Shown here: in pieces, positions 3,011-7,415 of the stretch
Position numbering within the stretch: the stretch's first letter is position 1
Layout of the letters: the number at the start of each line of letters is the position of its first letter
NCBI GenBank assembly: GCA_903916255.1
Contig: CAIWVW010000031.1
Coordinates: forward strand, 1-36,081
DNA from: an uncultured Bacteroidota bacterium
GTDB lineage: Bacteria > Bacteroidota > Bacteroidia > JABEUT01
Direction of reading: 5' to 3'
Length of the DNA: 36,081 nucleotides
Translations under genes and position numbers: made by a program
Notes under the pieces: model-generated
The model's input: the letters and a program-made list of their open reading frames with translations, nothing else
Told to the model about the DNA's origin: nothing
The model's database searches: none

Positions 3011-3385
3011 TTATTTTGATTTATAAGGACCTAAAAACTTGTTGCCATTAAAGTGAACTAAATGGTCAGGGTTATCAGCTGTCCAAACTTCCGTTTCCCA
3101 GGCAATATCAATAATCCATTTTCTGAATTCAGTTCTTGTAAGAAATGCTGTTACAAAAATTAACTCGGCAGTACAATCTTTCAACATTTTTTTCAATTCA
3201 TAAACTCTGATTTCACTCATGGGTCCCGAACTGTGGACTGCCTCAATCAAATAAAGCCAATTATTCTTTTTGCTGTATGCAATAATATCTGGCAACTCAT
3301 CATGAGATAATTCGAAGAAGTTAAGTTTCTTTAATTCGACTTCTTCACATTTTGAATAAAAAAGGGAAATAATGCAGAATGTTAC
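3011..3385 (-). pseudogene. BsuBI/PstI-type restriction endonuclease, C-terminal remnant
   Basis: The open frame runs from just after an in-frame stop at 3388-3386 to a stop at 3011. It encodes about 124 residues with no credible start codon. The segment ELPDIIAYSKKN followed by WLYLIEAVHSSGP matches the catalytic region of the BsuBI/PstI endonuclease family, with a PD and then an E-A-V at the end of a beta strand. The C-terminus (FNGNKFLGPY) also fits the family end. Full BsuBI/PstI enzymes are roughly 310-330 aa with an N-terminal helical domain; that entire half is missing. The break coincides with the C-box region of the divergent controller gene at 3383-3407. I infer that the C-R-M cassette replaced or interrupted the 5' half. 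Family assignment is from memory of the motif. Confidence 0.7.
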
Positions 3386-3407
3386 TTATAGTCTTTGATT
3401 TATAGTC
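3383..3407 (+). promoter_or_regulatory. Tandem C-box operator of the C-R operon
   Basis: Two 11-bp sites repeat with a 14-bp period: TACTTATAGTC at 3383-3393 and GATTTATAGTC at 3397-3407, separated by TTT. Each matches the controller-protein consensus GACTnnnAGTC at 7 of 8 positions. The layout is like the paired OL/OR sites in front of known C genes such as those of PvuII and Esp1396I. The second site ends 22 bp before the GTG start of the C gene. By family knowledge, dimers filling the distal site activate transcription and filling both sites represses it. Confidence 0.75.
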
Positions 3408-3429
3408 AACAAGTAACCACTTTTGCTCC

Positions 3430-3669
3430 GTGGATGTAAAGCTAAAAATCGGATATAGAATAAAAGAGCTTCGCGAAAAAGCTGGGATGTCTCAAAAGGA
3501 TTTGGCTTATGCTGCTGATTTAGATAGAAGTTACATCGCAAGTATTGAAAACGGACAACGAAATGTATCAATTATTAATATAGAAAAAATTGCTACTGCC
3601 TTAAATGTAACTCTGAAAGATTTTTTTAATAATGCCGAATTTAATAAAGATACAACAGGCAGTAGATAA
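3430..3669 (+). CDS. Restriction-modification controller (C) protein
   Basis: This is a 79-aa XRE-family helix-turn-helix protein, the usual size for R-M controller proteins (about 75-100 aa). The HTH covers roughly residues 9-63. GMSQKDLAYAADLDRSYIAS is helices 2-3 with the recognition helix, and ENGQRNVSIINIEKIATAL follows; the segment LDRSYIASIENGQRN is characteristic of C proteins. The start is GTG at 3430, because the frame has a stop at 3403 and no ATG. The ATG two bases downstream is out of frame. It binds the C-boxes at 3383-3407 and probably the site at 6314-6324. Its 3' end overlaps the downstream endonuclease start by 38 bp, which is typical of C-R operons and implies translational coupling. 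Confidence 0.85.
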   Translation: MDVKLKIGYRIKELREKAGMSQKDLAYAADLDRSYIASIENGQRNVSIINIEKIATALNVTLKDFFNNAEFNKDTTGSR

Positions 3670-4447
3670 ATTTAAAACTCTGATTGAGGACTCCATTCTG
3701 CAAGGCGGAATTGAGGCTAAAGAAGCATTGATAAGGTCTTCTAAATTAATTAACTATATTCATGAAGCAGTTAAATCGGCTTTGATTGAAAATGGTATTG
3801 AGAAACATAGAATTTATCCGCCTTTAGGTCAATCCTCACCCGAAATGAAACTTGCGGGATTTCTTAAACATAAACATCAAGACGTTTGTGTTGCTCCTGT
3901 TGGGTATACTCCAGAGAACGAAACCTTGAAGGAGGGGTTACTCAGGGAAGCAGAAGATTATTATGGAAGAGCTTATACAGAAAGAGTTTTAGCAATTAAT
4001 ATTAGGAGTCAAATGAGTAGTTTGGCAAAGAATTTTGATACACTCTATGAGAGGACAATTGCTGAGGCACAAAACCTGCATGTAAGATGTCAGAAAATGG
4101 TTTTGGGTGAAGTATATATGATTCCAGTAAAAGAATACAACCCTAAAGCAATGAAGAGGAAAGAGGTTGCTTTCATTGATAAAGTTGGTGCAGTTGAAAA
4201 ATATATCAAATCTTTTCAGGCTATAAACGGAAGACTCGATTTTACAAAAGAAGATTACAAATATGAAAAAGTTTGTTTACTGCTTGTTGATTTTAGTCAA
4301 ACTCCTGCAAAAATATATAACACAAACCAAGAACTCATTGATGATGGTCTAATGCCCAAAGATTCGCAGGCAAGTATTATTGAGTTGAATTGGGATTCAT
4401 TTACTCCCAGTATTCTTTCAACTTACAAGGCAAGATTTGGTAGTTGA
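3632..4447 (+). CDS. Putative type II restriction endonuclease
   Basis: This 271-aa protein sits immediately behind, and overlapping, the controller gene and converges with an adenine methyltransferase. That position makes endonuclease the best call. I do not recognise a named family with certainty. The segment KLAGFLKHKHQDVCV (D84) followed by LAINIRSQMSSLAKNF (residues 120-135) and YERT (E140) resembles in order the XhoI/PaeR7I pattern of GF, D, and E-L-K-S-Q. The expected E-x-K is replaced by N123-I-R125. A glutamate at E140, 15 residues after R125, could substitute for it, as in the NgoMIV/Cfr10I arrangement. Both points are inference. The C-terminal half has conserved-looking strands (VLGEVYMIPV, KVCLLLVDFS). 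The last 25 bp overlap the methyltransferase 3' end. Confidence 0.7.
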   Translation: MPNLIKIQQAVDKFKTLIEDSILQGGIEAKEALIRSSKLINYIHEAVKSALIENGIEKHRIYPPLGQSSPEMKLAGFLKHKHQDVCVAPVGYTPENETLKEGLLREAEDYYGRAYTERVLAINIRSQMSSLAKNFDTLYERTIAEAQNLHVRCQKMVLGEVYMIPVKEYNPKAMKRKEVAFIDKVGAVEKYIKSFQAINGRLDFTKEDYKYEKVCLLLVDFSQTPAKIYNTNQELIDDGLMPKDSQASIIELNWDSFTPSILSTYKARFGS

Positions 4448-6300
4448 ATAGCGAGTTGGTATTTATCAATCAAAAAATCATCTATTTCTTGCGGGTCTGA
4501 TAAGTCTTGCAAAATTTGAATTTCTTTTTCTGTAAATTTTGGTATTGTAAATTTTTCAATAAAGTTTTTTTGATAGCAGGGATACCCGCCCTCAATTGAA
4601 ATGCTAGTCTTACTAACGTAGTAATGCATCAGATATGAGTTCAATATTTTTTGGATGACTCCAATGTTTTCAATTTTAGTTAATGGATTAACCGTTTCAG
4701 CAAATAAGGAATTTTCATTCTTAGAGTCTTTGAAATATATTCCGTATCCGTTAGTATAAAAACCATCTTCCTCTTCAATAAGTAAAAATCTTGGAAGTTG
4801 ACTGAAGGTTGGATTGAGAATTTTCTTTCCGGTCCTTGTAAGTCCCTGAGTTCTGCCCCAAACAAAGAAAGGTTCAAATGTAACCTTGCCTTTATCCCTT
4901 GCTAAAAGGTTTTCTTTTTCAGAAATAAAAAAAGCATAGCATTTTGGGAATTTCTTTTTGAACTCATGCTCAGGAATTGCAGTGGCGCTTCCATTTTTGA
5001 TATTGTAAGGACAAATTATTCTTCTAGTATTATATTCAATGCTTTCCTGATTTTTGAAGTCAGATATTTTATATACGGGTTTTGTTATTTCTTTTTCTAC
5101 CTCAAAAATTCCAAAGTCTGTTGTCTTAATATAACACCCATTTTTTTCAACACTACCATCAATAAAAAATATTTCATCTTTAAGCGTAGCAATGCCAACA
5201 CAAATGTCAAACATTTTGCCTATAGGTGTTCCGATACTTTCAATTATACTTATGTTTTTCTGTTCGTCAGTTTTAAGCAATCTCCATTTCTTTATATTTA
5301 GGTTTTTCAAGTAGTTTGGTGAACCATTTGCATTGGATAAATAAACTTTTGGGCTTTGCATATCTGCTATCCGGTCATATGTAATTGCCTCGTTTTGTCC
5401 CTTGTTTAGAAAAGTAATTGCAGTATATGTTTGGGCGTCAAAAACCTTTTTGTGGCTAAAATCAATTATTCGAGTAACACATTTTTGATGTTGGAAATAT
5501 TTTCTTAGTGATTCACCGGACAATGAAGTAAAGTAATTGTTCGGGGTGATATATCCAAGTTTTCCAGTTGATTTTAATAACTTGTAACCAAGTTCAAAAA
5601 ATGCAAAGTAGAGGTTGAAGGTTCCTCCTTCCACTGTTGACCAATGCTTTGTCAAATATGTTCTGCTTTCCTCAGAAAGGTCTTGAAACTTTACATATGG
5701 TGGATTACCTACGATGTTATCGAATTTCAATTCCCAATTTGCTTTCAAACTATCTTGACACCAAAAATTGAAATCACTTTCTTCTAAAATTTCTCCATTT
5801 TGCAAAGCATAAATTGTGAGAATTAGTTTTGCTCTATGTATGTTGTATTCAAGAATATCCGAACCATATATATTTTCTTTTAATATTTTTCGAATAGGCT
5901 TATTGTAGGTTCTTTTGTAATAATCTGTAAGCCCAACTAAAAATGCACCACAACCGCAACTTGGGTCGAGATTAGCATCATTTTCTTTTGGTTGGATTTC
6001 ATTAATGATAAAATCAATAATAAAGTCAGGTGTGAAAAATGCTCCGTTAAACTTTCTATCACTAACAGGAATAATTAGTTCAAGGTAATTTTCAAGTTCT
6101 TTAATGGTTGTAATATTTAGGGAAGATGTATCGAAATAGAGTTGCGTATTTTGTTCAAAATCAACGAAATAATTTGCTAAAATTTGGCTTTCAGAGAAAT
6201 AGATTTTTTTATTTTGCAGGTAGGAATAAATAAAATGCTTCTCAAGGCTTCCTATGTCATGAGTATTTAGCAGTTCGTTTAAAATTCCTTTCTTAACCAT
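4423..6300 (-). CDS. N6-adenine DNA methyltransferase, gamma class (TaqI-like)
   Basis: This is a 625-aa S-adenosylmethionine-dependent DNA methyltransferase. The motif order X-I-IV marks the gamma class: GAFFTP at about 86-91 (motif X), DPSCGCGAF at 112-120 (motif I, SAM binding), and NPPY at 199-202 (motif IV, the catalytic motif of amino-methylating enzymes). The C-terminal half, from about residue 350, looks like a TaqI-type target-recognition domain. It should methylate adenine in the recognition site of the cognate endonuclease. It converges with the endonuclease gene and overlaps its last 25 bp. A C-box-like site lies over its predicted transcription start (6314-6324), which ties it to this controller and endonuclease rather than to the truncated BsuBI-like gene. 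Length exceeds simple M.TaqI but fits larger type II methylases. Confidence 0.9.
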   Translation of the reverse strand: MVKKGILNELLNTHDIGSLEKHFIYSYLQNKKIYFSESQILANYFVDFEQNTQLYFDTSSLNITTIKELENYLELIIPVSDRKFNGAFFTPDFIIDFIINEIQPKENDANLDPSCGCGAFLVGLTDYYKRTYNKPIRKILKENIYGSDILEYNIHRAKLILTIYALQNGEILEESDFNFWCQDSLKANWELKFDNIVGNPPYVKFQDLSEESRTYLTKHWSTVEGGTFNLYFAFFELGYKLLKSTGKLGYITPNNYFTSLSGESLRKYFQHQKCVTRIIDFSHKKVFDAQTYTAITFLNKGQNEAITYDRIADMQSPKVYLSNANGSPNYLKNLNIKKWRLLKTDEQKNISIIESIGTPIGKMFDICVGIATLKDEIFFIDGSVEKNGCYIKTTDFGIFEVEKEITKPVYKISDFKNQESIEYNTRRIICPYNIKNGSATAIPEHEFKKKFPKCYAFFISEKENLLARDKGKVTFEPFFVWGRTQGLTRTGKKILNPTFSQLPRFLLIEEEDGFYTNGYGIYFKDSKNENSLFAETVNPLTKIENIGVIQKILNSYLMHYYVSKTSISIEGGYPCYQKNFIEKFTIPKFTEKEIQILQDLSDPQEIDDFLIDKYQLAIQLPNLAL

Positions 6301-6313
6301 ATATTATAGCGTT

Positions 6314-6333
6314 GACTTTAAGTAACAAAATTA
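6314..6333 (-). promoter_or_regulatory. Promoter and C-box-like operator of the adenine methyltransferase
   Basis: On the minus strand, TAATTTTG (6333-6326) fits the TAnnTTTG -7 element. Directly downstream lies a site reading GACTTTAAGTA on the plus strand (6314-6324), which matches GACTnnnAGTC at 7 of 8 positions. The surrounding minus-strand word GTTACTTAAAGTCAAC shares 12 of 13 bases with the start of the C-gene operator. A protein bound here would cover the transcription start, so repression of the methyltransferase is the natural reading, as described for Esp1396I. Confidence 0.65.
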
Positions 6334-6369: not shown

Positions 6370-7407
6370 TTAAAAGAGGGTAAGCACTGTATTTGCCTGT
6401 AAATTATTTTCAAGAATTTCTTCATGAGAGTATAAATCACCCAGCTTATAACATTCTTTCAATGATAATGCCAGTTGATATGCCAAAAGAGGGGGAACTG
6501 CATTGCCTATCTGATTAAATTGTTGAGTTTCATTCCCAGTAAACTCAAACCAATCGGGAAAACTTTGTAAACGCGCGGCTTCCCTGTGAACCAACCTTCT
6601 TCGCCTTCCGTCCGGCAGGCGTACTCTTTGCATGTCCCCTGTTGCCCCGGCTAGGTTTCTGCAAGTCAAAGTCCTTGCAGGTTTGTTTGAATATAGGTCA
6701 CGGGGATTTATACAGAATGAAGCCTTTTCATATTTTGCAACATAGGTATCCATGGAAGCATTTAAAAATTTGCTTCCTTCTAATTCAATATACATTGTTT
6801 CCCCTATTGCCTCACCAACGGTAACTTTATTAGGATTCGGTTTTGGGAAATTAAATTTTGCTCTATGCCCAACAACAAAAAGTCTTTCACGATTCTGAGG
6901 CACGCCAAAGTGAACAGCATTCAAAAGTTTATAGTCAATAATATAGCCAAGTTTTTGCAACTCCTGAATTACTAAATCAAAATACCATTTGTTGGAATAA
7001 AGAAGTCCGCGAACATTTTCAAACATGAAAACTTTCGGTTTCAATTTCTTAACTGCATCAATAAAAATAGGAAAGCCGTCTCTTGAATCTTCAATTCCTT
7101 TTTGATGCCCGCCAACACTAAATGGCTGACAAGGTGGTCCCCCAATAATAATTTCTGCTTTGGGATACTTGAATGTAAGGTCAAGCTTAACAGCATGGCA
7201 CGCACTCCCTAAATTCTTTGTATAGGTTGTTGCGGCCGATTTTTCCATTTCAAATCCGATTGTTTTGTATCCGGCAGACTCAAAACCTAACGCTAAACCA
7301 CCACAACCTGCAAATAAGTCAAGCACGGTTTCTTTTTCGGTTTTCCGAGGTACAAGTGTAGTATTTAGGTGCTTAATGTAGCTCATTACATCAATCTGAA
7401 ATTGCAT
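6370..7407 (-). CDS. C5-cytosine DNA methyltransferase
   Basis: This is a 345-aa protein with the full set of m5C methyltransferase motifs in canonical order: DLFAGCGG at 30-37 (motif I), GGPPCQPFS at 89-97 with catalytic C93 (motif IV), ENVRG at 130-134 (motif VI), QNRERLFVVG at 171-180 (motif VIII), and GNAVPP at 301-306 (motif X). The target-recognition region between VIII and IX is short. The start is uncertain: ATG at 7407 gives the annotated form, but a TAACTTTG promoter box at 7415-7408 is so close that ATG at 7386 may be used. It lies 69 bp upstream of the adenine methyltransferase on the same strand. It could be a second methylase of one asymmetric-site system, or the partner of the broken BsuBI-like gene. 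Confidence 0.93.
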   Translation of the reverse strand: MQFQIDVMSYIKHLNTTLVPRKTEKETVLDLFAGCGGLALGFESAGYKTIGFEMEKSAATTYTKNLGSACHAVKLDLTFKYPKAEIIIGGPPCQPFSVGGHQKGIEDSRDGFPIFIDAVKKLKPKVFMFENVRGLLYSNKWYFDLVIQELQKLGYIIDYKLLNAVHFGVPQNRERLFVVGHRAKFNFPKPNPNKVTVGEAIGETMYIELEGSKFLNASMDTYVAKYEKASFCINPRDLYSNKPARTLTCRNLAGATGDMQRVRLPDGRRRRLVHREAARLQSFPDWFEFTGNETQQFNQIGNAVPPLLAYQLALSLKECYKLGDLYSHEEILENNLQANTVLTLF

Positions 7408-7415
7408 CAAAGTTA
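7408..7415 (-). promoter_or_regulatory. Candidate -7 element of the cytosine methyltransferase
   Basis: Minus-strand TAACTTTG fits TAnnTTTG. It abuts the first ATG at 7407, so if used it favours the internal ATG at 7386. A small inverted repeat, GTTAG/CTAAC (7412-7416 and 7425-7429), overlaps it and could bind a regulator. Confidence 0.35.

What the first reader, a model, noticed from the sequence alone, without database searches (positions are those of the whole stretch)
3383..6333. One controller may time both the C-R operon and the adenine methyltransferase: three C-boxes in a novel R-M pair
Seen: two GACTnnnAGTC-like sites with a 14-bp period lie in front of the C gene, and a third (GACTTTAAGTA, 6314-6324) lies directly over the predicted start of the convergent methyltransferase transcript. 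All match 7 of 8 consensus positions. Known: C proteins activate and limit C-R, and in Esp1396I also repress the methyltransferase. Inference: this system uses the same three-site logic, which identifies the adenine methyltransferase as the true partner of the 271-aa endonuclease. The C protein also carries the typical LDRSYIASIENGQRN.
Basis: partly seen in the sequence, partly recalled or inferred. Interest (0 to 1): 0.62.

Follow-up and report, generated by a model that had tools for sequence, protein, structure and literature searches.

The report
Three-operator timer for a restriction-modification system
A small DNA-binding protein appears to switch its own restriction enzyme on while turning down the protective methyltransferase, through three conserved DNA sites; the same wiring is found in dozens of related bacterial gene clusters, so a scheme documented for one enterobacterial plasmid is widespread in the Bacteroidota.

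Summary
Three C-box-like sites lie at 3383-3393, 3397-3407 and 6314-6324. A 7/8 match alone means nothing (5 in the window, 5.0 expected), but comparative evidence settles it. Among 80 loci fetched with the endonuclease plus the window, 73 have the adenine methyltransferase convergent with the endonuclease, and 59 have the C gene directly upstream. The operator pair before C is nearly invariant (59 of 65 upstream regions). The methyltransferase site is present in 47 of 52 clusters with a close C gene and 0 of 14 without; three to five independent losses of C go with loss of the site. In the 3.74-Mb genome GTTACTTAWAGTC occurs exactly only at these two places. The sites sit on Bacteroidota promoters. 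The -33 TTTG lies between the two C operators, and the C promoter lacks the T of the -7 box in 58 of 59 loci. The methyltransferase promoter has full TAnnTTTG, with the operator just downstream, over the predicted start. This is the logic of Esp1396I, whose R and M are not detectably related. It is inferred: no binding or expression was measured. The cytosine methyltransferase next door is not part of it. Ordinary in kind, new in breadth and wiring.

The parts
3381..3393 (+).
   Evidence: near-invariant in 59 of 65 upstream regions
3394..3397 (+). TTTG, predicted -33 promoter element, between OL and OR
   Evidence: conserved in the spacer (98-100% per base); 28 bases before the -7 G, the spacing of sigma-ABfr promoters (PMC7366714)
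3397..3411 (+).
3418..3425 (+). degenerate -7 box CACTTTTG of the C-R promoter (consensus TAnnTTTG, first T missing)
   Evidence: first T absent in 58 of 59 loci
3430..3669 (+). C gene, 79-aa controller protein, GTG start; transcript predicted leaderless
   Evidence: distance from TTTG to start codon constant in most loci
3632..4447 (+). R gene, 271-aa type II restriction endonuclease, overlaps C by 38 bp
   Evidence: PADLOC PDLC03558 E 7.7e-85; AlphaFold pLDDT 92.6, only weak fold matches, to BbvCI/PspGI
4423..6300 (-). M gene, 625-aa gamma-class N6-adenine DNA methyltransferase (NPPY motif), convergent with R, 3' ends overlap by 25 bp
6310..6326 (-).
6326..6333 (-). full -7 box TAATTTTG of the M promoter
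   Evidence: TA present in 47 of 47 loci

Best explanation
This is a complete type II restriction-modification system whose controller protein C works through three operators. A weak promoter drives C and R on a leaderless message. When little C is present, a C dimer on OL helps RNA polymerase at the defective -7 box (positive feedback, delayed R). When C accumulates, dimers on OL and OR cover the -33 element and shut the promoter. The methyltransferase starts from a consensus -7 box, so M is made at once in a new host; C then binds OM over the transcription start and turns M down. Shown here: the genes, the three sites, their conservation, their position on promoter elements, and loss of OM when C is lost. 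Inferred: binding, direction of each effect, order of occupancy, and the target sequence of the enzymes.
For: Operator pair conserved in 59 of 65 C upstream regions while flanks diverge. OM in 47 of 52 clusters with C of at least 50% identity, 0 of 14 without (Fisher p 1.5e-10, not corrected for kinship). On the M tree, loss of C and of OM coincide in on average 2.8 of 3 supported independent pairs, never the opposite. Mean pairwise identity 0.82 across -7 box and OM against 0.38-0.41 in flanks. Only two exact extended sites in the genome. M promoter TA of TAnnTTTG in 47 of 47; C promoter lacks the T in 58 of 59. Operators almost identical to Esp1396I, where C binding to three sites and repression of M are experimental. 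Residues that read the bases in C.Esp1396I (R35, T36, R46) are R, S or T, and R in all 61 C proteins compared. A non-homologous MjaI-type R-M locus (L143) has the same C, operator pair and an OM-like site before its methyltransferase.
Against: No binding, transcript start or expression was measured. Five clusters with C lack a recognisable OM (L013, L057, L059, L090, L092). The independent-pair test has too few pairs for significance (p 0.25). A -33 TTTG is found upstream of the M -7 box in only 36 of 47 loci and not in the window. OM prefers AAA where OL has ATA, so relative affinities may differ from Esp1396I.
Confidence: 0.85

Rival explanations
1. C controls only the C-R promoter; the conserved sequence before M is part of the M core promoter or initial transcribed region and is kept for RNA polymerase, not for C.
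For: The site abuts the -7 box in every locus.
Against: Absent from all 14 C-less relatives, including L025, L047 and L070, whose sisters have C and OM. The sequence is the C-box itself, including GTC and ACA half-sites. In L143 an OM-like site lies in reversed orientation and further from the -7-like element.
Confidence: 0.08
2. C binds OM but does not repress initiation: it only fine-tunes M, for example as a roadblock to elongation (a mode reported for C of Kpn2I at its own gene, PMC6237814), or has no net effect at physiological C levels.
For: The site is at about -4 to +13, which also allows a roadblock to elongation.
Against: Esp1396I OM has the same position and represses. A position downstream of the -7 box is not an activator position.
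Confidence: 0.1
3. The true partner of R is the cytosine-5 methyltransferase at 6370-7410 and the adenine methyltransferase belongs to another system.
For: It lies 70 bp from the M gene on the same strand.
Against: M is convergent with R in 73 of 81 loci and no ortholog of the cytosine methyltransferase is in those clusters. No C-box lies before 7410.
Confidence: 0.02
4. The third site is a chance 7/8 match.
For: 7/8 matches occur at the chance rate in the window.
Against: Conservation and co-loss with C.
Confidence: 0.01

Closest known systems
Esp1396I (plasmid pEsp1396, Enterobacter sp. RFL1396)
   Same: C-R operon convergent with M; C with the same base-reading residues (44% identity over 61 aa); operators ATGTGACTTATAGTC...GATTATAGTCAACAT and TGTAGACTATAGTCGACA nearly the same; OM shortly before the M gene
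   Different: R is of the BstXI family and M is a 332-aa enzyme, neither homologous to the window's by BLASTP. Period of the operator pair 15 bp against 14 here. Enterobacterial promoters against Bacteroidota (-33 TTTG, -7 TAnnTTTG) promoters.
AhdI and PvuII C-controlled systems
   Same: C.AhdI is the nearest solved C protein (E 2e-16); activation-repression by OL and OR; leaderless C message
   Different: In AhdI, M is repressed by its own product, not by C (PMC5333194); no third operator is described
Clusters in L010-L090 (same R and M families in Bacteroidota, Ignavibacteriota and a few MAGs of other phyla)
   Same: Same genes, order, operators and promoter elements
   Different: Some carry a second R gene in tandem (L010, L012, L013, L017, L021, L045) or a Dam-type methyltransferase insert (L026, L033); some lack C and OM
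MjaI-type R-M in L143
   Same: C 64% identical, same operator pair, OM-like site before a convergent methyltransferase
   Different: R is RE_MjaI family and M an N4/N6 beta-type enzyme; OM reversed and further downstream

Membership tests
C-protein-controlled type II R-M system | small HTH controller gene directly upstream of, and overlapping or abutting, R | tested here: met
   C 3430-3669, R 3632-4447; PADLOC Control_protein E 7e-26; nearest PDB C.AhdI, C.BclI, C.Esp1396I
C-protein-controlled type II R-M system | paired C-box operators overlapping the C-R promoter | tested here: met
   3381-3411, conserved in 59 of 65 upstream regions
C-protein-controlled type II R-M system | C activates then represses C-R transcription | not testable with these tools
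   only the promoter layout supports it
Esp1396I-type three-operator control | third C operator at the M promoter | tested here: met
   6310-6326; 47 of 52 clusters with C
Esp1396I-type three-operator control | convergent C-R and M genes | tested here: met
   73 of 81 loci
Esp1396I-type three-operator control | C represses M in vivo | not testable with these tools
   known for Esp1396I (PMC11736437)
Esp1396I enzymes themselves (R and M) | R and M homologous to R.Esp1396I and M.Esp1396I | tested here: not met
   no BLASTP match better than E 2
PD-(D/E)XK restriction endonuclease | PD-(D/E)XK fold of R | tested here: inconclusive
   good model (pLDDT 92.6) but best PDB matches weak: BbvCI E 7e-3, PspGI probability 0.91 with TM 0.4
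gamma-class N6-adenine methyltransferase | Eco57I/N6_Mtase domain with NPPY | tested here: met
   Pfam Eco57I E 8e-31; PDB matches include BseCI and TaqI methylases

The most novel reading that the evidence does not exclude
The controller gene with its three operators is a portable timing cassette that has been combined with at least three unrelated endonuclease-methyltransferase pairs (this family, Esp1396I, and an MjaI-type pair in L143), so C repression of the methyltransferase is a general solution and not a peculiarity of Esp1396I.
Probability: 0.5. Interest if true: 0.5.

Novelty: new variant of a known kind. Interest (0 to 1): 0.4.

Why it matters
Repression of the methyltransferase by C is documented in the papers read here for Esp1396I; the other C systems for which those papers describe methyltransferase control use other means. 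A family with over 40 natural variants of all three operators, independent losses of C with matching loss of OM, and two promoters that differ at one diagnostic base makes the timing logic testable in the Bacteroidota and gives natural data to compare operator sequence with dosage. It also pairs an uncharacterised endonuclease family with its methyltransferase.

Tried and rejected
The GACTnnnAGTC consensus as evidence by itself: at chance. A phylum-wide scan with a degenerate single site (GTTRCTYAWAGTC): too loose, hits in 81 of 395 genomes, most of them evidently chance. A composite-operator scan of the same class found 4 of 395 genomes: one the window itself, one the same system (L142, apparently the contig of L011), one an unrelated MjaI-type system (L143) and one 3-mismatch hit inside a long frame, taken as chance (L144). 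Viral contigs: one distant R relative (L135), no operator pair. PDB search with an R profile: nothing. Specificity of the enzymes: not derivable here. The two 2009 papers on C-box prediction (PMC2632904) and Esp1396I regulation (PMC2691842) are not held, so whether this family's third site was predicted before could not be checked.

Full report
What was claimed.

Sequence check. The three sites are present at the stated coordinates, each 7 of 8 to GACTnnnAGTC. That degree of match is at chance in the window (5 seen, 5.04 expected), so the argument had to be made on other grounds. The genes are sound: C (79 aa, nearest solved relatives C.AhdI, C.BclI and C.Esp1396I), R (271 aa, PADLOC REase_II, no Pfam or NCBIfam family above cut-off), and M (625 aa, Eco57I/N6 adenine methyltransferase). 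The 3' ends of R and M overlap by 25 bp and C overlaps R by 38 bp.

Relatives. A scan of 84,980 species genomes with an alignment of R gave 80 loci. With the window, 73 of 81 have M convergent with R, usually with overlapping 3' ends, 59 have C (at least 50% identity) directly upstream, and 58 have both. Thus the adenine methyltransferase is the partner of R. The cytosine-5 methyltransferase at 6370-7410 has no ortholog in these clusters.

C-R operators. Upstream of C, TGTTACTTATAGTC-TTTG-ATTTATAGTCAACA is nearly invariant in 59 of 65 upstream regions, while the sequence 5' of it diverges. The exceptions are four loci with only a weak C-like hit and two (L057, L092) with a 15-bp period like Esp1396I. 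After the pair comes a TTTG (or a one-base variant of it) 14 bases beyond AGTC in nearly all loci, and the start codon follows about four bases later. In Bacteroidota the primary sigma factor reads TTTG at -33 and TAnnTTTG at -7 (PMC7366714). Placing +1 at the start codon puts the spacer TTTG at -36 to -33 and the second TTTG at the -7 box, so the message is predicted to be leaderless, as reported for AhdI and PvuII. The first T of the -7 box is missing in 58 of 59 loci, which fits a promoter that needs its activator.

M operator. Upstream of M the sequence TAnnTTTG-TTACTTAAAGTCAACA is found in 47 of 52 clusters with C and in none of 14 without C. In 13,200 shuffled upstream regions the motif appeared 30 times. 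TA of the -7 box is present in 47 of 47. Pairwise identity is 0.82 over the -7 box and operator and 0.38-0.41 in the flanks. The distance to the start codon is mostly 21-27 bases, and the predicted leader in the window is about 22 nt. On a tree of M proteins C changes at least five times; the loss of OM accompanies the loss of C in sister pairs such as L042/L047, L063/L070 and L089/L025. The formal paired test has only three supported pairs and cannot reach significance, so the Fisher value is not corrected for kinship. In the window's genome the exact extended site occurs only at OL and OM; that pattern was chosen after seeing them.

Comparison with Esp1396I. On pEsp1396 the layout is the same and the operators are nearly the same. 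C.Esp1396I binds OL, OR and OM, and C represses the M promoter. Its base-reading residues R35, T36 and R46 correspond to R33, S34 (T in two) and R44 in the 61 compared C proteins. R and M of Esp1396I are not homologous to those here. The system therefore works like Esp1396I in its control but its enzymes are not of the Esp1396I families. Differences in wiring are the 14-bp period and the -33 element built into the spacer.

A third enzyme pair. In a genome of the same class, an MjaI-family endonuclease cluster with a beta-type methyltransferase (L143) has a 64%-identical C, the same composite operator and an OM-like site before M, in the other orientation. This suggests that the controller and its operators can be exchanged between enzyme pairs; one locus is thin evidence.

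Enzymes. R gives a confident model (pLDDT 92.6) whose best, weak fold matches are restriction endonucleases BbvCI and PspGI, which are PD-(D/E)XK enzymes (from general knowledge). The recognition sequence is unknown.

Limits. No binding, transcript or methylation data. The order in which C fills OL, OR and OM cannot be told from sequence: OM has outer TG and ACA on its two sides, but AAA in place of the ATA of OL. Two key earlier papers were not available, so an earlier prediction of this site cannot be excluded.

Verdict. Observation confirmed, interpretation supported; a widespread, differently wired variant of a known regulatory scheme.

Noticed in passing
window 3011-3349, minus strand: Truncated BsuBI/PstI-type endonuclease (positions 52-153 of the 154-position Pfam domain), the only copy in the genome, ending just upstream of the C operators. 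L011, L062 and L069 also have such a fragment near C, as if the cassette had landed beside or inside PstI-type systems more than once.
   Followed up: partly
window 6370-7410, minus strand: Cytosine-5 methyltransferase with TTG start, no evident endonuclease partner, 70 bp upstream of M; not conserved in related clusters.
   Followed up: partly
L010, L012, L013, L017, L021, L045: Two tandem R homologs (the second copy 42-49% identical to the window R) under one C gene with a single M; possibly a heteromeric enzyme or a second specificity.
   Followed up: no
L018 and L022 (CP058707.1): Two copies of the cluster about 14 kb apart in one chromosome with the same operators; M is broken into several frames in one copy (L018).
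   Followed up: no
L026 and L033 (same genome as L002/L091): A Dam-type methyltransferase and a small companion gene lie between R and M; OM is kept.
   Followed up: no
L143:4268-7290: MjaI-family R-M with a second, diverged MjaI-like gene and the same C/operator set.
   Followed up: partly
L140:2942-8016: A C gene behind GTTACTTATAGTCCGTG, directly upstream of a cytosine-5 methyltransferase, a GHKL ATPase and a further gene, next to a Vsr-like gene: a C-like operator on an operon that starts with a methyltransferase.
   Followed up: no
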